Source of the DNA: a virus
Strand: one strand, 5' to 3'
IMG/VR virus record: IMGVR_UViG_3300031787_000010
Location: 1-64,000 of that record
Length of the DNA stretch: 64,000 bases
The notes beneath the pieces are model-generated. The model saw only the letters and a list, made by a program, of their open reading frames with translations. It searched no databases and was not told the DNA's origin. How positions within the stretch are numbered: position 1 is the stretch's first letter; the number at the start of each line of letters is the position of its first letter. This document shows, in pieces, positions 38,245 through 58,342 of the stretch. The position numbers and the translations under genes are program-made.

Positions 38245-38582
38245 TGGACCCGGCGGGAATCGAACCCGCGTCCGAAATTGCTTCCTATCAAGGATTTATG
38301 TGTGTAGTCAGTTATTGAAATTCATCCAGTTCTCGTTAACTAACAAACGTAAACTGAACATAGAACCGAAGTATCACCTTGAATACGGTTCCTATCAAGG
38401 CTATACCGTATGAATAAACAAATTAACCGTATACGGTCTATCGGGTTAATTCGTCAGGCTGCAATTAAGCAGCGAGGGCTAAATTATAGTTGCCAGTTAG
38501 ATTTTTTGGTCTGTTTTACTCGTCTTACCAAACGAGACACAAAGCTTAATCATCCACACCCCGTCGAAACCAAGACGGGCCC
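38245..38582 (-). ncRNA. ssrA: tmRNA (ssrA)
   Basis: About 338 nt. The 5' end GGGCCCG pairs with CGGGTCC at the 3' end to form the 7-bp acceptor stem, and the 3' segment ends in a T-arm with GGGTTCGATTCCC. The 5' part has the conserved GGTTTCGACGG motif. A reading frame in the middle (GGC at 38492-38494 to TAA at 38465-38467) encodes the tag GNYNLALAA, ending in the LALAA type recognised by ClpXP-like proteases. It would rescue ribosomes stalled on broken mRNA and mark the products. No CCA is encoded. The exact resume codon is inferred from the tag frame. Confidence 0.93.
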
Positions 38583-47516: not shown

Positions 47517-47536
47517 TACTTATTTAAGATTGGGAC

Positions 47537-47565
47537 TTGACAAACTCAACACGCTGGTGTATAAT
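47537..47565 (+). promoter_or_regulatory. Promoter of the tRNA/ncRNA array
   Basis: TTGACA (47537-47542), 17-base spacer, TATAAT (47560-47565): the best consensus match in the window, opening the RNA gene array. Confidence 0.88.
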
Positions 47566-47572
47566 TAAAGTG

Positions 47573-47718
47573 TGGTCGGAATTACCCCCGAGTAATCGGG
47601 CAGTCCAAAAGACGGTTAGATAATCTCCTTCCACATAAAAGGTTTACTTTCCGAGTTCCCGGCCTCCGACAACGAGGAAATAACTCCGACGTATGGCTCA
47701 CGACACGAGCCACTCTAC
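47573..47718 (+). ncRNA. Structured RNA leader before tRNA-Glu
   Basis: No gene-sized frame. Contains several hairpins: CCCGA / TCGGG around TAA, TGGCTC / GAGCCA, CCTC / GAGG, and an outer TGTGG / CCACA. It starts about 7 bases after the -10 box, so it is a transcribed leader, perhaps the 5' part of a large RNA that continues past tRNA-Glu. Confidence 0.5.
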
Positions 47719-47790
47719 GCCGCGTTCGTCTATCGGTTAGGACATAGCCCTTTCAAGGCTAGAAGGCGGGTTCGATTCCCGCACGCGGTA
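47719..47790 (+). tRNA. tRNA-Glu (TTC)
   Basis: 72 nt, full cloverleaf, anticodon loop CTTTCAA, T-loop GGTTCGATTCC. Acceptor stem has a G-U first pair. Confidence 0.93.
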
Positions 47791-48043
47791 CTTGGTGCAC
47801 CGAAGCGCAGTCGAGGTGATGAAATGAAAGAACGTGCAAAATCTTTCAGCCAAAAGTTCCCGTCAGCTTCAATGGTTGTCTGACGTTAAACAATGAATCA
47901 TTCCGTTTCCACGACACGGGATACGCTGTGGGGTTGGTTAGTGCTTTCTTACCAAACAAGAAACGCAAAGGTTAAGGGGAGCGGGTCTAGACCGCGCGAC
48001 ATCCTTGGGTAACTGGAAACTACCTCAATTGTCACCCCTCTGA
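47791..48043 (+). ncRNA. Structured non-coding segment between tRNA-Glu and tRNA-Gln
   Basis: 253 nt with no convincing coding frame. Clear hairpins: TGAAAGA / TCTTTCA, CGTCAG / CTGACG, TTGGT / ACCAA, and palindromic GGGTCTAGACC within GCGG/CCGC. Probably part of a large structured transcript spanning both tRNAs. Confidence 0.5.
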
Positions 48044-48114
48044 TGCCCACTCGTATAATGGCAATACAGTTGACTTTGGATCAACGAATCGTGGTTCGAT
48101 TCCATGGTGGGCAA
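48044..48114 (+). tRNA. tRNA-Gln (TTG)
   Basis: 71 nt, acceptor TGCCCAC / GTGGGCA, anticodon loop CTTTGGA, discriminator A. Confidence 0.9.
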
Positions 48115-48118
48115 TAAC

Positions 48119-48244
48119 AGATGTGCAACGAGGGCAACGCCTGTGGTGGGGGCTACGTTCGAGTAACATAGTTGTCTAGTAACATTGGTGTGTGAACGAC
48201 ACGTTGAGCGACCTGGTCACATCTACTCTTTTTGTTCCTAGCAG
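48119..48244 (+). ncRNA. RNA closed by 7-bp terminal stem, with terminator-like end
   Basis: Ends AGATGTG (48119-48125) and CACATCT (48228-48234) pair, enclosing about 100 nt with several short stems. CTTTTTG follows and may end transcription. No coding frame. Confidence 0.5.
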
Positions 48245-48274
48245 TTCCTAATTAACTTTTAAATGGAGTACAAT

Positions 48275-48427
48275 ATGTACAAGTTTCTTCTTGTTCTTAC
48301 TGTTGCTACGTTGACCGCTTGCAGCACAAAGGAAGTTGCCGAAACTACGGCAGATTCTACTGCTGTAGCTATCGATTCGGTCAAGGTAACTACCGACAGT
48401 GCTGTTGTTGATTCAACCGCTAAGTAA
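48275..48427 (+). CDS. Small lipoprotein
   Basis: 50 residues, MYKFLLVLTVATLTACSTKEVAE. A signal peptide ends in the lipobox LTAC, with the lipidated Cys at 16. The mature part is Ala/Asp/Ser/Val/Thr-rich (TADSTAVAIDSV). AATGGAGTACAAT precedes the ATG. Hidden within the RNA array; its stop codon lies directly before the hammerhead fold. An outer-membrane role, such as superinfection immunity or lysis control, is a guess. Confidence 0.75.
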   Translation: MYKFLLVLTVATLTACSTKEVAETTADSTAVAIDSVKVTTDSAVVDSTAK

Positions 48428-48546
48428 GCAATACTGATGAGGCCTTAATGGCCGAAAGGTTTCCCACGGCGATTCTAGAGCATGGGGAAATTAAAATGGG
48501 ACACACTCATAGAACGCCGGTCCCTACCTCTATTGCAAGGAGACTT
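48422..48546 (+). ncRNA. Type I hammerhead ribozyme
   Basis: The core is complete: CTGATGA (48434-48440), stem II GGCC-TTAAT-GGCC (48441-48453), GAAA (48454-48457). Stem I pairs GCAATA (48428-48433) with TATTGC (48531-48536), and further out AAGT with ACTT (48543-48546). Stem III pairs AGGT (48457-48460) with ACCT (48526-48529), then CGGCG with CGCCG. The cleavage site follows C48530 in the CUC triplet. The fold begins at the lipoprotein stop codon, so self-cleavage would separate that mRNA from downstream tRNAs. Confidence 0.8.
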
Positions 48547-48621
48547 CCTCGTAAACGTATGTACGAGAATTAGTCTAATCAATGATGGTAAATGGTAAGC
48601 GCACCAGACTCATTGGCCCAC

Positions 48622-48650
48622 TTGACAAGTATTTTACTGACGTTTATACT
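48622..48650 (+). promoter_or_regulatory. Sigma-70-type promoter
   Basis: TTGACA (48622-48627), 17-base spacer, TATACT (48645-48650). A hairpin CTCGTA / TACGAG lies upstream of it and a TATAAATA octamer (48666-48673) downstream. Confidence 0.8.
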
Positions 48651-48696
48651 TAAGAGTGATACTAATATAAATAAAAATAAAAATTTCAGGGGAGTT

Positions 48697-48734
48697 ATGG
48701 TTGTCCCCACAGAAGTGCGCACTTCAACAACCAT
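48697..48734 (+). ncRNA. Hairpin ahead of the tRNA-Gly-like gene
   Basis: Arms ATGGTTGT (48697-48704) and ACAACCAT (48727-48734) enclose an inner perfect palindrome GAAGTGCGCACTTC. Probable leader structure of the transcript starting near 48657. Confidence 0.55.
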
Positions 48735-48737
48735 CCT

Positions 48738-48808
48738 GCGGTTCTAGTGTAATAGCTAGCACGGTTGGCGTCCAGCTAACAGGTCCGGTGCAACTCCGTG
48801 GAACCGCT
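48738..48808 (+). tRNA. Aberrant tRNA-Gly (TCC)-like
   Basis: 71 nt with a perfect 7-bp acceptor (GCGGTTC / GAACCGC), U discriminator and Gly-type D arm, anticodon loop CGTCCAG. Deviations: position 33 is G instead of U, the D-loop lacks the GG pair (AG), the T-loop is TGCAACT so GTTC becomes GTGC, and the T stem is imperfect. It is not ordinary decoding tRNA; see findings. A decayed gene is the alternative. Confidence 0.6.
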
Positions 48809-48813
48809 CTTGT

Positions 48814-48885
48814 CGCAGGGTAGAGCAGAGGCAGCTCGCCACGCTCATAATGTGGAGGCCGATGGTTCGAGTCCATCCCCTGCTA
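48814..48885 (+). tRNA. tRNA-Met (CAT), initiator-like
   Basis: 72 nt. C at position 1 faces U72, an unpaired start as in initiators, and the D arm TAGAGCAG ... CTC resembles fMet tRNA. The anticodon stem lacks the three G-C pairs usual in initiators, so the initiator role is likely but not certain. Confidence 0.8.
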
Positions 48886-48896
48886 TTTGAAATAAC

Positions 48897-48978
48897 GCGT
48901 TCGTGGCGGAACTGGCAGACGCACCAGATTTAGGCTCTGGCGATGTAAATCGTGTGGGTTCAAGTCCCTCCGAACGCA
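48897..48978 (+). tRNA. tRNA-Leu (TAG)
   Basis: 82 nt with long variable arm, anticodon loop TTTAGGC, acceptor GCGTTCG / CGAACGC. Confidence 0.93.
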
Positions 48979-48987
48979 TAGTAAGGC

Positions 48988-49016
48988 TTGACAACTTGAT
49001 AGAATTGATGTAAGTT
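48988..49016 (+). promoter_or_regulatory. Promoter of the large structured RNA
   Basis: TTGACA (48988-48993), 17-base spacer, TAAGTT (49011-49016). Confidence 0.65.
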
Positions 49017-49022
49017 GAATAT

Positions 49023-49463
49023 GTTGTTTGACAACAATCGGCGTGACGATGGTATCCATCCTAATTAATACCGTCACGCATCCGATTAGTAATCCCGCTG
49101 GGGTTACTGTAAACGGGGCACGGCGCCCGGGGTAAAAGTCCTCTATAAACCGCAGTGGTATCCATCGTGTCTTAACCTACGATGTAAAATACAAACCTTC
49201 GGGTAATACGTTAAGCGGTCGTATTGTCGAGACGAATACGCGGTACCCAATAGCCGATAAGTATTGGGAAGAGTGGTCCTCTTGTTGACGGCATAAGGCC
49301 GTTCATCTTAAATCAGCTGGTGTAGATGTGGCTACACCGTCCTGTCAGAATTCACAGGCGAATAGATGGCGTGATACACCATCTACCACAGTCTCCATAT
49401 CCACGATGGATATTGGGACGGGCGCTCTAGTCCCGAAGCGCACAACAAGTCTCGGGATTTTTT
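49023..49463 (+). ncRNA. Large ornate non-coding RNA (about 440 nt)
   Basis: No coding frame, own promoter and terminator. Reading along it gives well over a dozen hairpins: GTGAC...GTCAC, GTAATCCC / GGGGTTAC, CATCGT / ACGATG, CC-TTCG-GG, AATACG / CGTATT, CCCAATA / TATTGGG, ACGGC / GCCGT, GGTGTAG / CTACACC, CCTGT / ACAGG, AGATGG / CCATCT, ATATCCA / TGGATAT, GGGAC / GTCCC. Size, ornate fold and tRNA neighbours recall GOLLD and ROOL RNAs of phages, but membership is untested. Confidence 0.65.
49431..49463 (+). terminator. Intrinsic terminator of the large RNA
   Basis: TCCCGA (49431-49436) pairs with TCGGGA (49452-49457), followed directly by T6. tRNA-Lys begins 2 bases later. Confidence 0.75.
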
Positions 49464-49464
49464 A

Positions 49465-49538
49465 GCCTCCATAACTCAATTGGTCAGAGTAGCTGGCTTT
49501 TAACCAGTAAGTTCTAGGTTCGAGTCCTAGTGGGGGCA
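49465..49538 (+). tRNA. tRNA-Lys (TTT)
   Basis: 74 nt, anticodon loop CTTTTAA between GCTGG/CCAGT arms, T-loop GGTTCGAGTCC. Confidence 0.93.
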
Positions 49539-49541
49539 CTA

Positions 49542-49617
49542 TCCGCCGATGGCCAAATGGTGAAGGCAGCGGTCTTATATACCGAAGATGTGCAGGTTCA
49601 AGTCCTGCTCGGCGGAC
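49542..49617 (+). tRNA. tRNA-Ile (TAT)
   Basis: 76 nt, acceptor TCCGCCG / CGGCGGA, anticodon loop CTTATAT. A TAT anticodon is rare in bacteria, which usually read AUA with a lysidine-modified CAT. Confidence 0.85.
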
Positions 49618-49623
49618 TTTGTT

Positions 49624-49697
49624 GGGCCTTTAGCTCAGTTGGTTAGAGCACCCGACTCATAATCGGGAGTGCCTGGGTTCAAGCCCCAGAGGGCCCA
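49624..49697 (+). tRNA. tRNA-Ile2-like (CAT, lysidine type)
   Basis: 74 nt. Opening GGGCCTTTAGCTCAG and stem CGACTCATAATCG match tRNA-Ile2 whose C34 is turned into lysidine to read AUA; elongator Met is the alternative. Confidence 0.75.
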
Positions 49698-49704
49698 TAT
49701 ATTT

Positions 49705-49787
49705 GCCCTGGTGGTGGAATGGTATACACAGCAGACTTAAAATCTGCCGGCCTTACGGTCTTGCGAGTTCGAGTCTCGCCCTGGGCA
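49705..49787 (+). tRNA. tRNA-Leu (TAA)
   Basis: 83 nt with long variable arm, anticodon loop CTTAAAA in GCAGA/TCTGC arms. One acceptor mismatch. Confidence 0.9.
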
Positions 49788-49796
49788 CTTAAGTAC

Positions 49797-49868
49797 GCAC
49801 GTGTCATATAACGGCTATTATCCTAGCCTTCCAAGCTAGAGACGCGGGTTCGACTCCCGCCACGTGCT
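49797..49868 (+). tRNA. tRNA-Gly (TCC)
   Basis: 72 nt, anticodon loop CTTCCAA, normal T-loop GGTTCGACTCC. This is the ordinary Gly (TCC) tRNA, so the aberrant copy at 48738 is extra. Confidence 0.9.
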
Positions 49869-50064
49869 TGTAGTACAGCAGGACGTATCTTATACGGTTA
49901 GTGGTCGTATGGAAAGGCATCTGATGAAAACCCCCTGGGGTTAGGATGAATAACGACGATGTATAGGGGTGGTCATTCCGGCCGATTGCGGGTCTGATAC
50001 ACAGATAAGAGTTGCAACTACTTATCACCCGATTGCAGGACAACACCTTTCCCGCTGTACTACA
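49869..50064 (+). ncRNA. Large RNA closed by an 11-bp perfect stem
   Basis: TGTAGTACAGC (49869-49879) pairs exactly with GCTGTACTACA (50054-50064). The 174 nt inside hold hairpins AACCCC / GGGGTT and GATAAG / CTTATC, and a direct repeat CCGATTGC. No coding frame on this strand. No known RNA family recognised. Confidence 0.55.
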
Positions 50065-50087
50065 TTTACAAGTTCGATCCAAATACT

Positions 50088-50705
50088 ATGTCACCAGTAT
50101 ATAACAAAATTTATGCGGTAGGAGATTCACACGCTGGTACGTTTTATAGTATTACACATACCATGCCTACTGGTCCAAATACTATGTATACCATTGCTTC
50201 TACTCCCAAAGATCTAATTCAAGAGTGGGGAGTTGCAACCGATGGGTTGATAGTATTTTGCTTTGGTGAAATTGATGTGAGATGTCACATTCACAATCAA
50301 ATCATACAAAAAAATAGATTAGAAGATGAAGTTATAAACACACTAGCAACATCGTACATCAATAAAATTAAAACAGTAGACTCCGATATAGGAGTTATGA
50401 GTATAGTACCACCAGCACGTATTGAAACTCAATCTGATGTAATGAAAAATTCGCAGTATCCGTTCATAGGTTCAGATAGTGATAGAGTTCGATACACACA
50501 AAAATTAAATAATACACTTAAAAGTTTATGTGAAAAATACGGTATATTATATTTTGATATATACACGTTGTATGCTGATAACGACGGACATTTGAAATTA
50601 GATTATTCCGATTCTGATTTAATTCACATCAGAGATAATCAATATCCATCATATGTTTTAAAGTTACTGAATAGTATGGAAAACATACAAAAATATAAAA
50701 TATAA
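50088..50705 (+). CDS. SGNH/GDSL-type hydrolase
   Basis: 205 residues. Block I YAVGDSHAG, block III GEIDVRC and a C-terminal DLIHIRD suggest the Ser, Gly/Asn and Asp-His residues of SGNH esterases, which remove acetyl groups from sugars or peptidoglycan. Alone among tRNA genes, so substrate context is missing. Confidence 0.65.
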   Translation: MSPVYNKIYAVGDSHAGTFYSITHTMPTGPNTMYTIASTPKDLIQEWGVATDGLIVFCFGEIDVRCHIHNQIIQKNRLEDEVINTLATSYINKIKTVDSDIGVMSIVPPARIETQSDVMKNSQYPFIGSDSDRVRYTQKLNNTLKSLCEKYGILYFDIYTLYADNDGHLKLDYSDSDLIHIRDNQYPSYVLKLLNSMENIQKYKI

Positions 50706-50721
50706 TCTACTTATACACATT

Positions 50722-50793
50722 GCCACAATAGCTCAGCGGTAGAGCTCTCGATTTGTAATCGAGCGGTCGTCGGTTCAATCCCGACTTGTGGCT
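50722..50793 (+). tRNA. tRNA-Thr (TGT)
   Basis: 72 nt, anticodon loop TTTGTAA, acceptor GCCACAA / TTGTGGC. Confidence 0.93.
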
Positions 50794-50815
50794 CTTAACT
50801 TGAATGGAGTTGTCT

Positions 50816-50908
50816 ATGCCACATCCAAAAAAATGCGGAAAGGGCCGTCGAAAGATTGGGTCCAAGAAGCGTAATAATCGTTGGAAAAACAGAAAGCGCA
50901 AACACTAG
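50816..50908 (+). CDS. 30-residue arginine/lysine-rich peptide
   Basis: MPHPKKCGKGRRKIGSKKRN then NRWKNRKRKH; 15 basic residues. AATGGAGTTGTCT precedes the ATG. An RNA- or ribosome-binding peptide is plausible from charge only. Similar in shape to mini ribosomal proteins. Confidence 0.6.
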   Translation: MPHPKKCGKGRRKIGSKKRNNRWKNRKRKH

Positions 50909-50915
50909 TTCGACC

Positions 50916-50987
50916 GCGGGTGTAGCTCAGCGGTAGAGTCCGTGCTTGCCAAGCACGTTGTCGTGGGTTCGAATCCCATCGCCCGCT
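50916..50987 (+). tRNA. tRNA-Gly (GCC)
   Basis: 72 nt, acceptor GCGGGTG / CGCCCGC, anticodon loop TTGCCAA. Confidence 0.93.
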
Positions 50988-51008
50988 TAAATCTATAAGG
51001 AGTATAAT

Positions 51009-51137
51009 ATGTGTAAATGTGGAAGAAGTACACGCGAAGACGGTCTTTGTATGGGACTACATAAACTAACAGAACAAGAATATAAGCAGTTGTTGGCGGA
51101 ACAAAAGCTAACTACTACGCAAGAGGGTGATGAGTGA
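51009..51137 (+). CDS. 42-residue CDGSH-like miniprotein
   Basis: MCKCGRSTREDGLCMGLHKL ... with AAGGAGTATAAT upstream. The pattern C-x-C-x2-S ... C-x-G-x-H matches the three-Cys-one-His cluster site of CDGSH iron-sulphur proteins apart from Met for the Asp. A 2Fe-2S role is inferred. Confidence 0.55.
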   Translation: MCKCGRSTREDGLCMGLHKLTEQEYKQLLAEQKLTTTQEGDE

Positions 51138-51140
51138 GGC

Positions 51141-51169
51141 TTGACACTTTACTTAAAATAAGTTATACT
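51141..51169 (+). promoter_or_regulatory. Sigma-70-type promoter
   Basis: TTGACA (51141-51146), 17-base spacer, TATACT (51164-51169), 11 bases before tRNA-Ala. Confidence 0.85.
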
Positions 51170-51180
51170 TAAATCAGTAC

Positions 51181-51253
51181 GGGCCTGTAGCTCAGCTGGG
51201 AGAGCATCCGCTTTGCAAGCGAAAGGTCATCGGTTCGATCCCGATCAGGTCCA
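51181..51253 (+). tRNA. tRNA-Ala (TGC)
   Basis: 73 nt, anticodon loop TTTGCAA, acceptor GGGCCTG / CAGGTCC. Confidence 0.93.
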
Positions 51254-51256
51254 TTT

Positions 51257-51288
51257 AAAAGGTTCACTAGTAATAGCTGAACCTTTTT
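51257..51288 (+). terminator. Intrinsic terminator
   Basis: AAAAGGTTCA pairs with TGAACCTTTT, followed by T and CT, directly after tRNA-Ala. Confidence 0.75.
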
Positions 51289-51308
51289 CTATACTATTGG
51301 AGATTACT

Positions 51309-51440
51309 ATGTTTTTTCTTAAACTTATTCTGTGGTTGGGTATAGTCGTATGTGTTGCCGCTCTTGCTTTATTGTGGACATCGGGAATCACGCATATGAA
51401 TGAAATCCATCCAGACTATAAAGGGGAAGATTTTCCATAA
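51309..51440 (+). CDS. Small membrane protein
   Basis: 43 residues from ATG 51309 with TTGGAGATTACT upstream; one helix FLKLILWLGIVVCVAALALLW and a short acidic tail. Confidence 0.6.
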   Translation: MFFLKLILWLGIVVCVAALALLWTSGITHMNEIHPDYKGEDFP

Positions 51441-51461
51441 CACTAAATGATTTTCAATTGA

Positions 51462-51534
51462 GCCAAGATAGCTCAGTTGGTAGAGCAGCGGTCTGAAGAA
51501 CCGCGTGTCGGCAGTTCGATTCTGTCTCTTGGCA
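51462..51534 (+). tRNA. tRNA-Phe (GAA)
   Basis: 73 nt, anticodon loop CTGAAGA, acceptor GCCAAGA / TCTTGGC. Confidence 0.93.
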
Positions 51535-51549
51535 TGGAGGAAATAATAT

Positions 51550-51750
51550 ATGATACACGAATTTAAAACACCAATTCCAGTTAAAACACCTCACGGTGAC
51601 GGTGAAGCGTATCTTCTCATCGATTACGGTTTAAATGTAAATACGGTATGGCTAGTTCGGCTGAAGGGTGGTAAAGTTAAACATTACTATTCCGATGATG
51701 TCCGTATATACGATAATCCAATGAACGGAAATGGTTTCGATGTAGAGTAA
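51550..51750 (+). CDS. Hypothetical protein
   Basis: 66 residues, GGAGG about 8 bases before the ATG. Beta-rich (DYGLNVNTVWLVRLKGGKVKHYYSDDVRIY). No recognised domain. Confidence 0.55.
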   Translation: MIHEFKTPIPVKTPHGDGEAYLLIDYGLNVNTVWLVRLKGGKVKHYYSDDVRIYDNPMNGNGFDVE

Positions 51751-51761
51751 TCGGAGAAAAC

Positions 51762-51971
51762 ATGAAAGTCTATGAGTTAATCAACTTTCTTCAAACGCTT
51801 GACCAAGAGAAGAGAGTAACTATTTCGGGATACGAAGGTGGCGTCAACGATGTATCCGGTGTGTACGATGTGCATCTAGTAATTGATAAAAACGAAAAGT
51901 GGTATTATGGAAAGCATGAAAATGTACTTCCAGACGAACCACACGATGAAGTAGGATATTTGTTACGTTAA
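51762..51971 (+). CDS. Hypothetical protein
   Basis: 69 residues (MKVYELINFLQTLDQEKRVTISGYEGG) preceded by CGGAGAAAAC. The opening resembles small phage proteins that begin V-x-ELI-x-x-L. Function unknown. Confidence 0.55.
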   Translation: MKVYELINFLQTLDQEKRVTISGYEGGVNDVSGVYDVHLVIDKNEKWYYGKHENVLPDEPHDEVGYLLR

Positions 51972-51984
51972 CACAAAATACATT

Positions 51985-52362
51985 ATGGATGATGAAAAGC
52001 CGTTGTTGACTCCCGAAGATTTTAATGATATTACATCGCTAGACGATGTGATGGCGTGTACCAAACTTGACAGGAATAGTGTGGCAGATTGTGTGTTCGC
52101 AGTTGGGTTACGGTTCATAGAGTTACCAGAAAAGCAAACCATCGTAGATGTCTTTGAATCTGCCGGGTTTATCAAGAGTAAAGGTCAGTTCAAGAAGAAT
52201 CCTACGCAGTTACGAGTGAATGGAAAAAAAGTCAACCCTAATGACCCGTGGAACTTTGGTATCACCGCAGTATTGTGTTTCGGAAAACATAGAAATGAAG
52301 CGGGTGTTATTTGGTTTCGTAAATGCACAGAGAACGAAGATGGTAGTGTAAGAAAGATATAG
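51985..52362 (+). CDS. Hypothetical protein
   Basis: 125 residues. Contains an acidic N-terminus and GKKVNPNDPWNFGITAVLCFGKHRNEAGVIWFRKC near the end. No known motif. Confidence 0.5.
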   Translation: MDDEKPLLTPEDFNDITSLDDVMACTKLDRNSVADCVFAVGLRFIELPEKQTIVDVFESAGFIKSKGQFKKNPTQLRVNGKKVNPNDPWNFGITAVLCFGKHRNEAGVIWFRKCTENEDGSVRKI

Positions 52363-52366
52363 TTAT

Positions 52367-52439
52367 TCCCCGATAGCTCAGTCGGTAGAGCAGCTGACTG
52401 TTAATCAGCGGGTCACAGGTTCGAGTCCTGTTCGGGGAG
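52367..52439 (+). tRNA. tRNA-Asn (GTT)
   Basis: 73 nt, anticodon loop CTGTTAA, acceptor TCCCCGA / TCGGGGA. Confidence 0.93.
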
Positions 52440-52445
52440 CTATTT

Positions 52446-52529
52446 GGGCGGGTGGCCGAGTGGCTGAAGGCATGGGTCTGCAAAACCTTTGGAGTAATCC
52501 CACCGCAGGTTCGAATCCTGTCTCGCCCT
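52446..52529 (+). tRNA. tRNA-Cys (GCA) with extended variable arm
   Basis: 84 nt, anticodon loop CTGCAAA. The variable region carries an extra GGA-GTAA-TCC hairpin, making it type II like Ser/Leu tRNAs, although ordinary tRNA-Cys has a short variable loop. D arm GTGGCCGAGTGGCTGAAGGC also looks Ser-like. Confidence 0.85.
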
Positions 52530-52544
52530 CTGGAGGTAGTAATT

Positions 52545-52781
52545 ATGACAGCAGAAGAATATAAAACATTAGCACACCCAGAAGCAATTGTGTGGGAAGA
52601 ATTTGATGATGCAATTATCGCTGTAGCCATCGACGGTCGTTTGGTCTACTCTACACAAAAGATGATTGAAATTTTAAACGAAACAGATGATATGACAGAA
52701 GAAGATGCACTAGACTATCTTCAATACAATCTGTTTAATACTTATGTAAACGAATATATGCCATATCATACTATGATTTGA
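52545..52781 (+). CDS. Acidic hypothetical protein
   Basis: 78 residues from ATG 52545 with TGGAGGTAGTAATT before it. Helical, acidic (NETDDMTEEDALDYLQYN). Function unknown. Confidence 0.6.
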   Translation: MTAEEYKTLAHPEAIVWEEFDDAIIAVAIDGRLVYSTQKMIEILNETDDMTEEDALDYLQYNLFNTYVNEYMPYHTMI

Positions 52782-52786
52782 TATAT

Positions 52787-52859
52787 GCGTCGGTAGCTCA
52801 ATTGGTAGAGTCCCGGTCTCCAAAACCGGTTGTTACAGGTTCGAGTCCTGTCCGGCGTG
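52787..52859 (+). tRNA. tRNA-Trp (CCA)
   Basis: 73 nt, anticodon loop CTCCAAA, discriminator G as usual for Trp. Confidence 0.9.
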
Positions 52860-52866
52860 TTTACAA

Positions 52867-52938
52867 GGAGCATTGGTCTATCGGTTAGGACGCTAGCCTG
52901 TCACGCTGGAAGGACGAGTTCGATTCTCGTATGCTCCG
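52867..52938 (+). tRNA. tRNA-Asp (GTC)
   Basis: 72 nt, anticodon loop CTGTCAC, acceptor GGAGCAT / ATGCTCC, discriminator G. Confidence 0.93.
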
Positions 52939-52945
52939 TTTATAT

Positions 52946-53021
52946 AGCACGGTGGTCTGAACTGGTTGAGGCACCGCTCTCATAAGGCGGGTTCATGTGG
53001 GTTCGAGTCCCACCCGTGCTA
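52946..53021 (+). tRNA. tRNA-Met (CAT), elongator
   Basis: 76 nt, fully paired acceptor AGCACGG / CCGTGCT, anticodon loop CTCATAA. Third CAT tRNA of the array. Confidence 0.85.
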
Positions 53022-53041
53022 TTGACTTTAGTGGAGAATCT

Positions 53042-53233
53042 ATGTATTATATTACTTACAACGATGTAATCACACCACACCCGTATTTTACCAGAGAAGA
53101 AGCGGTTGCAGAATTGAAGAAAACGTTTGGTGAGATTGAAATTGATTCACACGATGTTGCATATTGGCCAAGTGTTTCAGCACGTGGCCACACCAAAATT
53201 GAAATCAAGAAGTATGAAGGTGAATTAGAATAA
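53042..53233 (+). CDS. Hypothetical protein
   Basis: 63 residues from ATG 53042 after GTGGAGAATCT. Mixed alpha/beta, ends KIEIKKYEGELE. The stop touches tRNA-Tyr. Confidence 0.6.
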   Translation: MYYITYNDVITPHPYFTREEAVAELKKTFGEIEIDSHDVAYWPSVSARGHTKIEIKKYEGELE

Positions 53234-53319
53234 GGGAGTGCTGCAGAGTTGGAGGACTGCACCGGACTGTAAATCCGTCGCCTTAACCGGCCTAGTTGGT
53301 TCGAATCCATCCACTCCCA
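53234..53319 (+). tRNA. tRNA-Tyr (GTA)
   Basis: 86 nt with long variable arm, anticodon loop CTGTAAA, acceptor GGGAGTG / CACTCCC. Confidence 0.93.
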
Positions 53320-53344
53320 TAACAAATTAAAGTAATCCACAAGT

Positions 53345-53821
53345 ATGAATATAAACAAATTTCTAAAAGCTCAATATGTAGGTAAAGATAAAAAGTTATG
53401 TAAAAACTGCAATACCTATAAATCTTGGCCTACAGAATTTCCATCGAAAGGAAATAATAAGAAAGGTGAAAAAATTTATAGACATATGTGCAAACCGTGC
53501 TGGCGTCCTTTCGAACGAACAAAAGAACGAAAGAAAATTGAGAAATGTAGAGATTTTATGGTGGATTTTTTACTTCAGAATCCATGCGTAGATTGTGGAA
53601 ACTCCGATATTCGTGTGTTGGAATTTGACCATATCAAGGAAAAGAATACTGACGTATCAATATTATTATCAAATGGTAAGTTAAAAAGGTTACAAGAAGA
53701 AATAAAATTATGTGAAGTTGTATGTGCTAATTGTCATAGAATACGCACTATGCGCCGTGGTAACTTCTACAGACATCGGTACTACAAAGACACACAACAG
53801 TCCCTTAGCTCAGTTGGTTAG
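53345..53821 (+). CDS. HNH endonuclease, possibly a mobile gene in the tRNA array
   Basis: 158 residues. An N-terminal zinc finger (CKNCNTYK ... CKPCW) and an HNH core (CVDCGNSDIRVLEFDHIKE ... CEVVCANCHRIRT). Its last 23 bases overlap tRNA-Ile, which suggests insertion or shared ends. Free-standing homing-type HNH genes often sit beside tRNA genes in phages. Confidence 0.85.
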   Translation: MNINKFLKAQYVGKDKKLCKNCNTYKSWPTEFPSKGNNKKGEKIYRHMCKPCWRPFERTKERKKIEKCRDFMVDFLLQNPCVDCGNSDIRVLEFDHIKEKNTDVSILLSNGKLKRLQEEIKLCEVVCANCHRIRTMRRGNFYRHRYYKDTQQSLSSVG

Positions 53822-53872
53822 AGCGTTGTTCTGATAAAGCAAAGGTCGCTGGTTCGATTCCAGCAGGGACTA
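53799..53872 (+). tRNA. tRNA-Ile (GAT)
   Basis: 74 nt, anticodon loop CTGATAA, acceptor AGTCCCT / AGGGACT. The 5' end lies inside the HNH gene. Confidence 0.92.
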
Positions 53873-53875
53873 CTT

Positions 53876-53948
53876 ACCCCTGTGGCGCAATTGGAAGCGC
53901 AAGAGATTTCTACTCTCTGGGTTGCGGGTTCGAGTCCTGCCGGGGGTG
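53876..53948 (+). tRNA. tRNA-Arg (TCT)
   Basis: 73 nt, anticodon loop TTTCTAC, acceptor ACCCCTG / CGGGGGT. Confidence 0.92.
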
Positions 53949-53970
53949 TTTTTGTATAGTGAATTTACAT

Positions 53971-54046
53971 GGTGATTGTAGCTCAACTGGTTAGAGCATC
54001 GGATTGTGATTCCGAGGGTTGCGGGTTCGAGTCCCGTCATTCACCC
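53971..54046 (+). tRNA. tRNA-His (GTG)
   Basis: 76 nt, anticodon loop TTGTGAT, discriminator C as in tRNA-His. The base before position 1 is T, so the usual encoded G-1 seems absent. Confidence 0.88.
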
Positions 54047-54075
54047 TAGATTGTGCTATTGTAAATGAGTTAAAT

Positions 54076-54240
54076 ATGAAAACGGTAATTATATTTTTAG
54101 GTGTATTCATTCTGGTATTAGAATTTATAGTTAAACGAGCAGAATATAAATCTAAAAAAATAAAAGAAGAACAAGAACGCCAACGACAAGTTGCTAGAAA
54201 GCAACGTGAAGAGTGGTTGAATAGATATAGAAATTATTGA
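54076..54240 (+). CDS. Small membrane-anchored basic protein
   Basis: 54 residues from ATG 54076: hydrophobic helix VIIFLGVFILVLEFIV, then Lys/Glu/Gln/Arg-rich helix. Weak ribosome site. Confidence 0.5.
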   Translation: MKTVIIFLGVFILVLEFIVKRAEYKSKKIKEEQERQRQVARKQREEWLNRYRNY

Positions 54241-54241
54241 C

Positions 54242-54314
54242 GCTGACATAGCTCAGTTGGCAGAGCACTACTTTGGTAAAGTAGAGGTCACCAGTTCAAT
54301 CCTGGTTGTCAGCT
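54242..54314 (+). tRNA. tRNA-Thr (GGT)
   Basis: 73 nt, anticodon loop TTGGTAA, acceptor GCTGACA / TGTCAGC. Confidence 0.92.
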
Positions 54315-54316
54315 TC

Positions 54317-54389
54317 GCCTCAATAGCTCAATTGGAAGAGCACCGGTCTTCGGAACCGGCTGTTGTGGGTTCGACTCCTGCTTGGGGCA
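54317..54389 (+). tRNA. tRNA-Arg (TCG)
   Basis: 73 nt, anticodon loop CTTCGGA. Reads CGA and other CGN codons, complementing the TCT copy. Confidence 0.9.
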
Positions 54390-54390
54390 C

Positions 54391-54419
54391 TTGACATAAT
54401 TAAAACAATTGGTTATACT
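54391..54419 (+). promoter_or_regulatory. Sigma-70-type promoter inside the array
   Basis: TTGACA (54391-54396), 17-base spacer, TATACT (54414-54419), 12 bases before tRNA-Pro. Confidence 0.85.
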
Positions 54420-54431
54420 TAATAGAAGTTA

Positions 54432-54506
54432 CGGAGAGTAGCTCAGTCCGGTTAGAGCACTCGCTTTGGGAGCGAGGGGTCGCAGGTTCGAATCCTGTTT
54501 CTCCGA
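54432..54506 (+). tRNA. tRNA-Pro (TGG)
   Basis: 75 nt, anticodon loop TTTGGGA, acceptor CGGAGAG / TTCTCCG. Confidence 0.92.
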
Positions 54507-54511
54507 CTTAA

Positions 54512-54626
54512 AATATGTACGTAGACTAATAACCGCCCACCAGTGCGGTGCACAAGAAAGGTATTGACTGCAGCCTATACCAATCATCTGGTACAGAAAC
54601 ACTAGTCACGTTTCTGCGTACATATT
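54512..54626 (+). ncRNA. 115-nt cloverleaf-like RNA closed by 10-bp stem
   Basis: AATATGTACG (54512-54521) pairs with CGTACATATT (54617-54626). Inside, in order: ACCGC / GCGGT, GGTAT / ATACC and CAGAAAC / GTTTCTG hairpins, giving a four-way junction like an oversized tRNA but without T-loop signature. No coding frame. Confidence 0.6.
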
Positions 54627-54702
54627 ATATGTTAGTTGTCAGCCACGGAATCTGGTGGTTAAACCGTGGAAGTAAAAGACCGCGCGGTTCGACTAACATA
54701 TA
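54626..54702 (+). ncRNA. 77-nt RNA closed by 11-bp stem
   Basis: TATATGTTAGT (54626-54636) pairs with ACTAACATATA (54692-54702); inside, CCACGG / CCGTGG and ACCGC / GCGGT. It abuts the previous element, sharing one base, so the two may be processed from one transcript. Confidence 0.55.
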
Positions 54703-54713
54703 CATATGACGTT

Positions 54714-54757
54714 TGGTAGAGTTCGTCACTGGCACCTTCGGGTGATAATAACTACCA
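54714..54757 (+). ncRNA. 44-nt hairpin RNA
   Basis: TGGTAG / CTACCA outer stem and a CACC-TTCG-GGTG inner hairpin, immediately before tRNA-Val. Confidence 0.5.
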
Positions 54758-54760
54758 CTT

Positions 54761-54834
54761 GGACAATTAGCTCAGCTGGTTAGAGCATCGCTTTTACACA
54801 GCGAGGGTCGGCGGTTCGAATCCGTCATTGTCCA
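54761..54834 (+). tRNA. tRNA-Val (TAC)
   Basis: 74 nt, anticodon loop TTTACAC, acceptor GGACAAT / ATTGTCC. Confidence 0.92.
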
Positions 54835-54843
54835 TTCCAGCTA

Positions 54844-54888
54844 GTGATATCAGTGGTCTGCTGGAAACCACAACGTTGCTGATATCAC
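54844..54888 (+). ncRNA. 45-nt RNA closed by a 10-bp perfect stem
   Basis: GTGATATCAG (54844-54853) pairs with CTGATATCAC (54879-54888), with an inner TGGT / ACCA stem. Sits 4 bases before tRNA-Leu. Confidence 0.55.
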
Positions 54889-54892
54889 ACAC

Positions 54893-54974
54893 GCTCTTGT
54901 GGTGGAATGGTATACACGGCAGTCTCAAAAACTGCTTCCCATTGGGATTGTGAGTTCGAGTCTCACCGGGAGCA
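54893..54974 (+). tRNA. tRNA-Leu (CAA)
   Basis: 82 nt with long variable arm, anticodon loop CTCAAAA, discriminator A. Confidence 0.9.
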
Positions 54975-55039
54975 TAAGGATATAGGGCGGTGTAGGTGCT
55001 AGCAGTCGCCTGTTAAATGTTCACAATACTATGTCCTTA
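54975..55039 (+). ncRNA. 65-nt RNA closed by an 11-bp stem
   Basis: TAAGGATATAG (54975-54985) pairs with CTATGTCCTTA (55029-55039) with one wobble pair; inner GGCG / CGCC hairpin. It follows tRNA-Leu directly. Confidence 0.55.
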
Positions 55040-55061
55040 CTACTTTTAGTGTAAAGATTAT

Positions 55062-55808
55062 ATGAAATATGCATTACTCATCTCTGGTCAACCGCGAAAT
55101 GTTAAAGAAGCATACGAAGGTATCTATACAAAAGTTATAGAACCTAACGGCATAAAAGACATTTTTATTCATTCGTGGATTGATCCTGATATGGTCGGTA
55201 AGCAGTATGTAGCACAGTGGCGTAGAAAGTTATTAAAGCAACAACAAAATGAAGAAGCAGAGGAACGATCTGTTGCCAGTAAAGTAGTTCCATCAAATAT
55301 AGATTCTACTATTTTAGAATTATATAATCCAAAAGTATGGAAGTTTGAAAAGCCAAAAACATTTTCATACGATACTTCTGTAGAAGAATATCTATCAGAT
55401 GTAATGTATCCACAAGATATGTTAAGTTGGATGTACTCTATGTGGCAAGCAAATCTTCTTAAAACCGAATACGAAAATTTTCATAAGATAAAATATGATA
55501 TGGTACTTCGTATACGGTTTGATTTCTTACCAGCCGAACCGTTAGACCTAAAAAAGTTTACAGAGATCGACACAATATACGCATCAGATCGTTATCCATC
55601 TGAAATTGGAATGAACGATATATGGTGCGCTTGCAATAGTAATTTGATGGATATCTATACTAGTATGTTTTTAAATTTTGAAAACATATTATCTGACGCA
55701 GGTGATGTTAGATTCAATCACGAAATGATGCTTAAACGTTGGATTGAAGTGATTAATAAAATTAAAGTAGAACGCATAGATTTCGACTTTGGAACTATGT
55801 TGATTTAA
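55062..55808 (+). CDS. Glycosyltransferase-like conserved phage protein
   Basis: 248 residues. N-terminus MKYALLISGQPRNVKEAYEGIYTKVI and IFIHSWIDPD, then YDMVLRIRFDF, resemble sugar-transferase-like proteins of aquatic phages. No certain DxD motif. Position among tRNAs gives no hint. Confidence 0.5.
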   Translation: MKYALLISGQPRNVKEAYEGIYTKVIEPNGIKDIFIHSWIDPDMVGKQYVAQWRRKLLKQQQNEEAEERSVASKVVPSNIDSTILELYNPKVWKFEKPKTFSYDTSVEEYLSDVMYPQDMLSWMYSMWQANLLKTEYENFHKIKYDMVLRIRFDFLPAEPLDLKKFTEIDTIYASDRYPSEIGMNDIWCACNSNLMDIYTSMFLNFENILSDAGDVRFNHEMMLKRWIEVINKIKVERIDFDFGTMLI

Positions 55809-55813
55809 ATCTA

Positions 55814-55898
55814 GGACAGGTGGCCGAGTGGTTTAAGGCAGCAGTCTTGAAAACTGCCGAACTGAAAGGTTCCGTGAGTTCGAATCTCACCCTGTCCG
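55814..55898 (+). tRNA. tRNA-Ser (TGA)
   Basis: 85 nt with long variable arm, anticodon loop CTTGAAA, acceptor GGACAGG / CCTGTCC. Confidence 0.93.
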
Positions 55899-55913
55899 TT
55901 TTTTGGAGGTTTT

Positions 55914-56237
55914 ATGAACGATTTAGTTAAAAAATATTTTGCCGCACTCTCTAACAAAAATTTAACGACATTATCTGAATTATACCACGATGATGTTGTT
56001 CTTTGGGAATGGGGTCAACGTGTTTTCATAGGAAAGGAAGAAGTATTGAAAGCTAACGAAGAACTGTTCAGCTCGTCGGAAACTTTAACGGTGCTCGTAC
56101 AAACGTCTGCTACAGACGGTGATAAACACTACTGCGAATTATCTATTATACTGGATGAAAAATTAATTTCAGTACTTGATGTTCTTACTATAAAAGATGA
56201 TAAGATTTTTTCCGTACAGGCATACCGAGGATTCTAA
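55914..56237 (+). CDS. SnoaL/NTF2-fold protein
   Basis: 107 residues. KKYFAALSNKNLTTLSELYHDDVVLWEWG is the opening helix and strand of SnoaL-like NTF2 domains, and VLDVLTIKDDKIFSVQAYRGF the closing strands. TTGGAGGTTTT precedes the ATG. The stop overlaps the next start (TAATG), so it is coupled to the thioesterase. Confidence 0.75.
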   Translation: MNDLVKKYFAALSNKNLTTLSELYHDDVVLWEWGQRVFIGKEEVLKANEELFSSSETLTVLVQTSATDGDKHYCELSIILDEKLISVLDVLTIKDDKIFSVQAYRGF

Positions 56238-56596
56238 TGCGATTTCTTACCCGCAAACTAGTACAACCAGGAGATTTAAATGCTAACGGTACTCTGTTTG
56301 GTGGTCGTTGTCTTGCTTGGGTTGACGAAGAAGCAGCAATCTATGCGGCAATCGAAACACGACACAAGAAAGTCGTAACGAAAAGTATTTCAGCAATTAA
56401 TTTTGTCGCTCCTGCGTTTCAAGGTGATGTGGTAGAAATCGGTATAGCTCTAAAAAAAGTTGGTAGAACATCACTTACATTAGAAGTTCAAGTACGAGAT
56501 TTGACTACACAAAGAATAATTGTAAATATTGATGAAATGGTATTCGTATGTGTTGATGATACGGGAAAGCCAACACGACACTCTTTGAGCACATGA
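56237..56596 (+). CDS. YciA-like acyl-CoA thioesterase
   Basis: 119 residues, hot-dog fold. VQPGDLNANGTLFGGRCLAWVDEEAAIYA matches acyl-CoA thioesterase II type enzymes, with Asp30 as likely catalytic base, and a later SISAINFVAPAFQGDVVEI. It would hydrolyse short acyl-CoAs. Unusual in phages. Confidence 0.85.
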   Translation: MRFLTRKLVQPGDLNANGTLFGGRCLAWVDEEAAIYAAIETRHKKVVTKSISAINFVAPAFQGDVVEIGIALKKVGRTSLTLEVQVRDLTTQRIIVNIDEMVFVCVDDTGKPTRHSLST

Positions 56597-56603
56597 GGTC
56601 AGT

Positions 56604-57002
56604 ATGATTGAAACTATTGGTATAATTGTTAGTGTTGCTACAGGAATCTTATCTGGAATCGGTACCGTAAAAGGACTACAAGCTGACAAGAAGAATACAA
56701 TTAGCCAATTCTTAAATGTTATCGCTGACACTATTGATGAAGCTGTTGTGAAGTTTAAGAATGATGAGATTCCCCACGGCGCATGTGAACGTATGAGACG
56801 ATACGCCACAGAGTTCCCATATGCATTAGAAGGTTATATGGAAACTGACAAGTTACAAACTTATGCTGACGAGTTATATCGGGCTCACGAAATTGAACAA
56901 CTGTATAAAACAGTAAAGGATAGTCCAGAAAGTATAGCAGAACTGGAACGCGCTGCCAGTGGATTTAGAGTAGCAGCAAATATGATTAAATTTACCAAGT
57001 AG
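56604..57002 (+). CDS. Hypothetical protein with hydrophobic N-terminus
   Basis: 132 residues. N-terminal hydrophobic segment (IGIIVSVATGILSGIGTV), then a helical domain. No recognised family. Confidence 0.5.
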   Translation: MIETIGIIVSVATGILSGIGTVKGLQADKKNTISQFLNVIADTIDEAVVKFKNDEIPHGACERMRRYATEFPYALEGYMETDKLQTYADELYRAHEIEQLYKTVKDSPESIAELERAASGFRVAANMIKFTK

Positions 57003-57010
57003 AGGTTACT

Positions 57011-57265
57011 ATGAACTTAACGCCACAAGATAAGAAAAAGCTCGAGAACGCCTTAAAGGATATGAGCGCGTCAATGGCACGGCAATCAGCCGAACGTGAT
57101 TTGCAAAAGAATGTTATTGGTGATATCTGCGAAGAGTTGGATTTAAATAAGAAAGTGTTTCGTAAGCTAGCGAAGGTCTATCACAAGCAGAATTTCGCAG
57201 ACGAGGTAGCTACTCATCAAGAATTTGAATCTCTCTATGAGACGGTCACTAAAAATACCTTATAA
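57011..57265 (+). CDS. DsbA-like dsDNA-binding protein
   Basis: 84 residues, KKKLENALKDMSASMARQSAERDLQKNVIGDICEEL ... FRKLAKVYHKQNFADEVATHQEFESLYETV. Length and helical pattern match T4 DsbA, a small protein binding near late promoters. Assignment from memory of the family, moderately certain. Confidence 0.6.
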   Translation: MNLTPQDKKKLENALKDMSASMARQSAERDLQKNVIGDICEELDLNKKVFRKLAKVYHKQNFADEVATHQEFESLYETVTKNTL

Positions 57266-57273
57266 TAGACCCC

Positions 57274-57302
57274 TTGACAAATAATTGGTTTTTGGGTAAA
57301 TT
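57274..57302 (+). promoter_or_regulatory. Sigma-70-type promoter
   Basis: TTGACA (57274-57279), 17-base spacer, TAAATT (57297-57302). The TTG of this -35 box is a false start for the next gene. Confidence 0.75.
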
Positions 57303-57330
57303 TCAATATATCCCAAACCAAGAGGTTTTT

Positions 57331-57888
57331 GTGAATCAGATTCAGAAGTATATCGATCATTATGAGAACAAACTTTCCCTTGCAGCTTCTTATGCGAAGA
57401 AAAATGAAAAGGGATTTGTTCGTTCGACGATGGGTGAATTGGTTGAAGGTATGTTGGATTTGATTTGGACGGATGTTGTTGGTGGTTCCTCTAAAAAGAA
57501 TGACTATGTGGTTTCGAAAAGCACGAGCGGAATTAAGCTGAAGTTTCAGGTTGATCGACATCTATACACTCCTTCTAACACTCTTGTCGCGTTAGGGGAG
57601 TGTAAAGCATATCTTGACCGATGCTTTATGGAACGTGCAAGTAGTGATTTTAGTCGAATCACCCGTGGTCTTAAACAGAAACCGGCAACATTTATTCTGG
57701 CACTCGAACAAGCTACTGGAAAAGATGCGTTTCAGTACTATATGGATGAAGGTCATATCGATCATATTTTCTTTTTGTGTGATGGCATTCGTTCACCAAA
57801 GAAGCCTATCTGGAATAACAACTTTTACAAGCCTATCAATCGTAAGAGTTTGCAATCCTTTGTTTCCTTTATTGAATCAATGAGGTAA
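57331..57888 (+). CDS. PD-(D/E)xK-like protein, GTG start
   Basis: 185 residues from GTG 57331, which has AGAGG 5 bases upstream; a longer frame would begin inside the promoter. VALGECKAYLDRCFMERASSDFSR contains an E-x-K pair, with Asp and Glu further upstream, as in type II restriction-like nucleases. Substrate unknown. Confidence 0.55.
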   Translation: MNQIQKYIDHYENKLSLAASYAKKNEKGFVRSTMGELVEGMLDLIWTDVVGGSSKKNDYVVSKSTSGIKLKFQVDRHLYTPSNTLVALGECKAYLDRCFMERASSDFSRITRGLKQKPATFILALEQATGKDAFQYYMDEGHIDHIFFLCDGIRSPKKPIWNNNFYKPINRKSLQSFVSFIESMR

Positions 57889-57891
57889 TTT

Positions 57892-58017
57892 ATGTTATTC
57901 AAAATGGCAATGTTGCTTGTGGGTCTTATCTTTATTGTGGCCACGTTCGGTGCTATATATCTTGGGTATGAAAAAAATACAGAAGAGTATAACAATCGTA
58001 ATAGGAAAGATTTATGA
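57892..58017 (+). CDS. Small membrane protein
   Basis: 41 residues, helix AMLLVGLIFIVATFGAIYLGY, then a charged tail; ATGAGGTAATTT before the ATG, 4-base overlap with the next gene. Confidence 0.6.
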   Translation: MLFKMAMLLVGLIFIVATFGAIYLGYEKNTEEYNNRNRKDL

Positions 58018-58223
58018 AAACGGTTTTTATTGTATTAGGTATTTGGACAATGGTTTCTTTAATATTTTGTTTTGTTATCTGGCCTAGAATTGCAAACCGA
58101 TTTATTCCAGCAACCAACGATACCTTTATCAGATCAAGATGTAGAAAGTGCGGAAATATTCAACGGTGTTGTGCACCGCCTTGTTCAAAGTGTCAGAGTA
58201 TTGACATGGAAATGCTAAAATAA
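58014..58223 (+). CDS. Membrane-anchored zinc-ribbon protein
   Basis: 69 residues. One N-terminal helix (TMVSLIFCFVIW) and a CRKCGNIQRCCAPPCSKCQ cluster. Function unknown. Confidence 0.6.
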   Translation: MKTVFIVLGIWTMVSLIFCFVIWPRIANRFIPATNDTFIRSRCRKCGNIQRCCAPPCSKCQSIDMEMLK

Positions 58224-58231
58224 TAGAAGTT

Positions 58232-58318
58232 GGAAGTGTGGCCGAGTGGTTTAAGGCAGCTGTCTACTAAACAGCCGTGGGATAATACCTACCGTGAGTT
58301 CGAATCTCACCGCTTCCG
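58232..58318 (+). tRNA. tRNA-Ser (ACT)
   Basis: 87 nt with long variable arm, anticodon loop CTACTAA, acceptor GGAAGTG / CGCTTCC. Anticodon ACT (A at 34) is unusual; most bacterial AGY-decoding tRNA-Ser has GCT. Confidence 0.88.
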
Positions 58319-58342
58319 TACTCATACTTAAGGAATACACAT

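What the first reader, a model, noticed from the sequence alone, without database searches (positions are those of the whole stretch)
54507..55061. Cassette of small RNAs each closed by a 6-11 bp stem, between tRNAs
Five elements (54512, 54626, 54714, 54844, 54975) have near-perfect complementary ends enclosing 30-95 nt with internal hairpins, none a tRNA. Stem sequences differ from element to element while the layout repeats, which is the mark of selection on structure. Possibly a family of phage RNAs using tRNA-processing enzymes for maturation.
Basis: partly seen in the sequence, partly recalled or inferred. Interest (0 to 1): 0.75.

Follow-up and report, generated by a model that had tools for sequence, protein, structure and literature searches.

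The report
Structured RNA genes among phage tRNAs
An uncultured large phage carries, wedged between its tRNA genes, a set of small folded RNAs unlike any catalogued RNA; three of the five keep their folds by paired mutations in related phages, so they are real RNA genes, with a job still unknown.

Summary
The gaps between tRNA-Pro, tRNA-Val and tRNA-Leu (54508-54892) and the stretch after tRNA-Leu are almost filled by five + strand structured RNAs. Two are not simple closed stems: E3 and E4 fold as pseudoknots. Relatives in IMG/VR settle the matter for three. E1 (5 phages) keeps 110/110 pairings with 9 of 22 pairs changed on both sides. E2 (4 phages) keeps 97%, 5 pairs changed on both sides. 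E4 (2 phages) keeps 19/19 across three interlocked helices, 5 changed on both sides. G-U pairs outnumber A-C 24 to 1, so the + strand RNA is selected. E3 and E5 have no relatives and rest on one-sequence statistics.

The five are not one family: models of E1 and E2 find only themselves, once per genome. The same modules sit beside different tRNAs in different phages, 0-7 nt away, like extra tRNA genes. A strong sigma-70-like promoter (54391-54419) precedes the cassette. Rfam, ARAGORN and named phages hold no match. More such elements occur in this array and in relatives.

Best reading: new families of small structured RNAs, co-transcribed with and cut out alongside tRNAs, the same kind as T4 rnaC/rnaD and GOLLD/ROOL. 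Processing and trans function are inferred.

The parts
54391..54419 (+). sigma-70-like promoter TTGACA-17-TATACT (11 of 12) 12 nt upstream of tRNA-Pro; start of the cassette's likely transcription unit
   Evidence: pattern expected 0.21 times per window, seen 6 times, 4 of them in the tRNA array on the tRNA strand
54432..54507 (+). tRNA-Pro(tgg)
54512..54626 (+). E1: closing stem 54512-54521/54617-54626, hairpin 54532-54536/54545-54549, variable middle, 3' hairpin CAGAAAC/GTTTCTG 54594-54600/54610-54616 contiguous with the closing stem; its loop GTCA (54605-54608) can pair with 54522-54526
   Evidence: 5 homologs (window, L005, L209, L220, L221), 110/110 cells paired, 9 double-changed pairs
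54627..54702 (+). E2: three-way junction; closing stem 54626-54638/54690-54702, hairpin AGCCAC/GTGGTT with conserved loop GGAATCTG, hairpin AACCGTG/CGCGGTT with 14-nt loop, contiguous with the closing stem
   Evidence: 4 homologs (window, L004, L005, L164), 97% paired, 5 double-changed pairs
54707..54757 (+). E3: H-type pseudoknot TGACG/CGTCA with TGGTAG/CTACCA, inner hairpin CACC-TTCG-GGTG
   Evidence: 19 of 5000 shuffles contain such a pseudoknot; descriptor hits only here among inter-tRNA gaps of the held arrays; no homolog
54760..54835 (+). tRNA-Val(tac)
54836..54888 (+). E4: three interlocked stems P1 54836-54841/54860-54865, P2 54845-54853/54879-54887, P3 54854-54857/54867-54870; fills the Val-Leu gap
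   Evidence: homolog L006 17604-17654 (same in L009): 19 pairs kept, 5 double changes, none broken
54893..54974 (+). tRNA-Leu(caa)
54975..55039 (+). E5: 11-bp closing stem TAAGGATATAG/CTATGTCCTTA starting at the first base after tRNA-Leu
   Evidence: z -3.1; no homolog found
49870..50063 (+). F: about 194-nt structured RNA of the same kind elsewhere in the array, closing stem GTAGTACAGC/GCTGTACTAC, directly after tRNA-Gly
   Evidence: found in 14 IMG/VR stretches by pattern, all beside tRNAs; 14 predicted pairs with double changes

Best explanation
The cassette is one transcription unit in which non-tRNA RNA genes are interleaved with tRNA genes. Shown: E1, E2 and E4 are distinct + strand structured RNAs kept by selection on base pairing, single copy (tested for E1 and E2), exchanged as modules between positions in tRNA arrays of related phages. 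Inferred from anatomy: transcription from the promoter at 54391 gives a Pro-E1-E2-E3-Val-E4-Leu-E5 precursor. The host's tRNA enzymes (RNase P at tRNA 5' ends, tRNA 3' endonucleases at their 3' ends) free E4, E5 and the E1-E3 block. E1 and E2, whose 3' hairpin runs directly into the closing stem as the T arm runs into the acceptor stem of a tRNA, may themselves be cut at their base. The closing stems then protect the ends, giving small stable RNAs. Guess, about 20%: they act in trans during infection as decoys or inhibitors of host nucleases or translation and defence factors, which would suit their mix-and-match distribution.
For: Covariation: E1 (score 0.505 against 0.230 +- 0.046 in shuffles, 0/500; slid registers 30-63% paired), E2, E4 (random placement of the same 10 changes keeps all pairs in 2 of 200,000). 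Strand: G-U 16 and 8 against A-C 1 and 0 cells. No Rfam match. Single copy of E1 and E2. Modules beside different tRNAs: E1 after Pro, Ser or E2; E2 after E1, Ala, Pro or Ser; E4 between Val and Leu or between F and Thr. Spacing 0-7 nt, as between tRNA genes. Promoter; no + strand terminator-like site in or near the cassette. Precedent: T4 rnaC/rnaD next to tRNA-Arg, transcribed late with unknown role (PMC3014915, PMC9697503).
Against: No transcript or processing data. E3 and E5 have no homologs. E1's pseudoknot is invariant and so untested; E4 rests on two sequences. E1+hairpin and E2+hairpin stacks (17 and 20 bp) are longer than the 12 bp of a tRNA, so RNase P cutting at their base is uncertain. 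The syntenic Pro-Val gap of L033 holds no such RNA but a small ORF-like stretch, so the RNAs are dispensable.
Confidence: 0.74

Rival explanations
1. Spacer or insulator structures: the stems have no product function and only keep neighbouring tRNAs folding and being processed correctly in a long precursor.
For: They lie only in tRNA arrays, 0-7 nt from tRNAs or each other, with closing stems that would isolate them.
Against: Loops are conserved in sequence (E2 GAATCTG and AAAAGAC; E1 TGAC and GTCA), E4 is an elaborate three-stem pseudoknot, and the same module moves beside different tRNAs; most tRNA pairs in the array do without such spacers.
Confidence: 0.12
2. Decoys for a host toxin or nuclease, such as mimics of type III antitoxin RNA (pseudoknots that block a toxin), on the model of phage phiTE pseudo-ToxI.
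For: E3 and E4 are pseudoknots of 50-55 nt; phiTE escapes ToxIN with phage-borne pseudoknot RNA (PMC3475682); modular gain and loss fits an arms race.
Against: No repeats, no match to antitoxin RNA families in Rfam at E<=5, no defence-gene homologs among the nearby proteins tested; E1 and E2 are not simple pseudoknots.
Confidence: 0.12
3. Decayed or highly divergent tRNAs or other known RNAs.
For: They lie in a tRNA array; a cryptic tRNA-Gly missed by ARAGORN does exist at about 48738-48809.
Against: No cloverleaf: ARAGORN and the tRNA covariance model find nothing in E1-E5; folds are kept by compensation, which decay would not do.
Confidence: 0.03
4. DNA-level elements (recombination sites, small mobile repeats) that shuffle the tRNA array.
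For: Inverted repeats; modules occur in different contexts.
Against: G-U to A-C asymmetry 24:1 shows selection on the + strand RNA; E1 and E2 are single copy.
Confidence: 0.03

Closest known systems
Phage T4 rnaC and rnaD (species 1 and 2 RNA)
   Same: Small RNAs (139 and 119 nt) inside a phage tRNA cluster, a few bases from a tRNA, same strand, function unknown (PMC3014915, PMC9697503).
   Different: No match of the E1 or E2 model to T4; rnaC has a T-arm-like 3' end (CCGGGTTCGAATCCCGG), these do not; here at least 5 and probably many more elements, several per phage.
GOLLD and ROOL RNAs
   Same: Structured phage RNAs of unknown function near tRNA islands (PMC12286853).
   Different: Those are large (GOLLD often over 800 nt), known Rfam families; E1-E5 are 51-115 nt and match neither.
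Phage phi80 M3 RNA and other non-tRNA RNase P substrates
   Same: Phage small RNA outside the tRNA family cut by RNase P (PMC11143913); same proposed maturation.
   Different: No sequence or position relation shown; RNase P cleavage here is not tested.
pseudo-ToxI of phage phiTE
   Same: Phage-encoded small pseudoknot RNA (PMC3475682), compare E3 and E4.
   Different: Not repeated, no antitoxin family match, different topology in E4.

Membership tests
tRNA | Cloverleaf recognised by ARAGORN or the RF00005 model | tested here: not met
Small stable RNAs of phage tRNA clusters (T4 rnaC/rnaD kind) | Encoded within a tRNA cluster on the same strand, spaced like a tRNA | tested here: met
Small stable RNAs of phage tRNA clusters (T4 rnaC/rnaD kind) | Homologous to rnaC or rnaD | tested here: not met
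   E1 and E2 models do not hit L222 (T4); E3-E5 not tested by model
Small stable RNAs of phage tRNA clusters (T4 rnaC/rnaD kind) | Accumulates as a discrete RNA during infection | not testable with these tools
   no transcript data
GOLLD / ROOL | Match to the Rfam covariance model | tested here: not met
Type III antitoxin RNA (ToxI-like) | Tandem repeats of a pseudoknot RNA next to a toxin gene, or Rfam match | tested here: not met
   no Rfam match, no tandem repeats apparent in the sequence, no PADLOC hit in neighbours tested
Self-cleaving ribozymes (hammerhead, twister, pistol, HDV-like and others) | Match to the Rfam model | tested here: not met
   E<=5 on 47400-55100
Non-tRNA RNase P substrates | Cleaved by RNase P | not testable with these tools
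   coaxial 3' hairpin on closing stem in E1 and E2 is suggestive only

The most novel reading that the evidence does not exclude
A lineage of large phages treats tRNA arrays as a docking system for a swappable repertoire of dozens of unrelated small RNA genes, each matured for free by tRNA-processing enzymes and each acting in trans on a different host target such as a defence nuclease.
Probability: 0.2. Interest if true: 0.88.

Novelty: new variant of a known kind. Interest (0 to 1): 0.63.

Why it matters
Phage tRNA arrays are usually annotated as tRNAs plus empty spacers. Here the spacers hold several new structured RNA families with good covariation, absent from Rfam and from the named-phage collection searched. 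They give testable alignments and models for a long-standing puzzle (what T4's extra stable RNAs are for), and suggest that small RNA genes travel with tRNA genes as exchangeable modules.

Tried and rejected
E2 has an alternative fold (CCACGG/CCGTGG plus ACCGC/GCGGT); in L004 two of its pairs break, while the junction fold keeps both internal hairpins fully paired in all four, so the alternative was rejected. An E1 loop complementary to an E2 loop in the window (CCACCAG/CTGGTGG) is not kept in L005. Searches for E3 and E5 homologs by blast, and for E3 by structural descriptor, found none; one search missed elements at gap ends through a loop-bound error and is superseded. An E4 sequence pattern over IMG/VR gave 39 stretches, most of them without the fold and without tRNAs nearby. 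No homolog in named phages; one F-family pattern found nothing in genome contigs. Extending the E1/E2 models to 50 whole records gave no new members; a pattern scan then added L220 and L221.

Full report
What is there. The window is part of a 166,598-base IMG/VR virus record whose baseplate protein is nearest, at 36-41% identity, to Microcystis phage Mel-JY01, Flavobacterium phage immuto and an uncultured phage. ARAGORN finds 29 tRNAs from 47719 to 58319, all on the + strand, plus a tmRNA. None of E1-E5 is called as a tRNA or an Rfam family, even at E<=5.

Is it more than chance. In the Pro-Val gap there are 3 stems of at least 9 bp against 0.29 in dinucleotide shuffles (0/500); the other two gaps reach 0.8% and 3.6%. 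Fold z-scores are -3.5, -4.8, -1.5, -2.6 and -3.1 for E1-E5. The gaps fold better on the + strand than on the - strand relative to shuffles. Over 43 inter-tRNA gaps without long ORFs in 17 arrays, gaps with stems of at least 10 bp number 9 against 1.4 expected (some arrays are closely related, so the gaps are not all independent).

Relatives. Contigs L002, L003, L020 and L084 match the window at 100% over what was compared and count as the same phage. An endolysin search and pattern searches brought in related phages with tRNA arrays. E2 occurs in L004, L005 and L164; E1 in L005, L209, L220 and L221; E4 in L006 and L009.

Covariation. E2 (alignment A1 by MAFFT, not fitted to structure): 97.1% of 103 cells paired, 5 pairs changed on both sides, slid registers 30-39%. 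With only four sequences in two subgroups the count of double-changed pairs alone does not beat the shuffles (91/500), but cells changed on both sides and the covariation score do (1/500 each). E1 (A7, fitted to a model from three MAFFT-aligned members): 110/110 cells paired, 9 of 22 pairs double-changed, covariation 0.505 against 0.230 +- 0.046, 0/500 shuffles; on the unfitted three-member alignment 78/78 and 7 pairs. E4: three interlocked stems, 19 pairs, 5 double changes, none broken; random placement of the same 10 changes keeps all pairs in 2 of 200,000 trials (P3 is aligned by structure, one base out of the sequence register). A descriptor of that topology hits only the window, L006 and L009 in the inter-tRNA gaps of the held arrays. 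G-U cells outnumber A-C 16:1 in E2 and 8:0 in E1, which points to + strand RNA and not a DNA cruciform.

Folds. E2 is a three-way junction: closing stem, hairpin with loop GGAATCTG, hairpin with a 14-nt loop, the latter running straight into the closing stem. E1 has a closing stem, a 5' hairpin, a variable middle and a 3' hairpin that also runs straight into the closing stem, with a possible loop-to-5' pairing TGAC/GTCA (invariant, so untested). E4 has P1, P2 and P3 in the order P1a P2a P3a P1b P3b P2b. E3 is an H-type pseudoknot by sequence alone (19/5000 shuffles). E5 is an 11-bp closed element. E1 and E2 models find only their own element in the genome, once each, so the five are not one family.

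Mobility and expression. E1 follows tRNA-Pro (window, L220, L221), tRNA-Ser (L209) or E2 (L005); E2 follows E1, tRNA-Ala, -Pro or -Ser; E4 lies between Val and Leu or between element F and Thr. Spacing to tRNAs or other elements is 0-7 nt where measured, apart from the far sides of some elements in relatives. TTGACA-17-TATACT at 54391-54419 lies just upstream of tRNA-Pro; six such near-consensus sites occur in the window against 0.21 expected, four in the array on the tRNA strand. No + strand terminator-like site lies in or near the cassette. A precursor carrying tRNAs and elements, cut by tRNA enzymes, is the simplest reading; it is inferred.

Known kinds. T4 rnaC and rnaD are small RNAs beside tRNA-Arg, expressed late, role unknown. 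GOLLD and ROOL are large phage RNAs near tRNA islands. RNase P is known to cut phage M3 RNA and other non-tRNAs. E1-E5 share setting and kind with these, not sequence where tested. Verdict: real, new families of a known kind, unusually many and modular; function open.

Noticed in passing
window 49870-50063; L004, L005, L006, L205-L214: Element F, a larger structured RNA with long conserved stretches (TTAGTGGTCGTATGGAAAG, CAGGACAACAYCTTTCCCGCT), variable inserted hairpins and a covarying closing stem, always beside tRNAs; no Rfam match.
   Followed up: partly
L005:18081-18185; L006-L009, L018, L030, L209, L214, L221: Another conserved non-coding element (family H) in tRNA arrays of relatives; no copy noticed in the window.
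   Followed up: no
window 47792-48043, 48115-48812, 48979-49464: Long ORF-poor stretches between tRNAs, conserved in relatives (Glu-Gln gap in many arrays; the last mainly in L033); 49010-49464 folds with z about -3; probably more structured RNAs.
   Followed up: partly
window about 48738-48809: Cryptic tRNA-Gly (anticodon tcc by eye) missed by ARAGORN and Rfam here but called in relatives L004, L032, L033, L036 at about 85-97% identity.
   Followed up: partly
window 38245-38582 (-); L005:706-1045: Phage-encoded tmRNA with tag GNYNLALAA; a relative has one too.
   Followed up: no
window 50816-50908: 30-codon ORF for a very basic peptide (MPHPKKCGKGRRKIGSKKRNNRWKNRKRKH), DNA conserved in the arrays of several relatives; no Pfam match.
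   Followed up: partly
window 47537, 48622, 51141, 54391: Four near-perfect sigma-70 promoters along the tRNA array, suggesting several transcription units read by host RNA polymerase.
   Followed up: partly
L221:5028-5820: Further stem-closed elements, for example TGTGTTGTAGA/TCTACAACACA enclosing about 60 nt just before tRNA-Ser.
   Followed up: no
L220:5959-6149 (-): Group I intron inside the tRNA array of a relative (Rfam RF00028).
   Followed up: no
window 53345-53821: HNH endonuclease gene between tRNAs, a possible mover of array segments (T4 has segB in its tRNA cluster).
   Followed up: no
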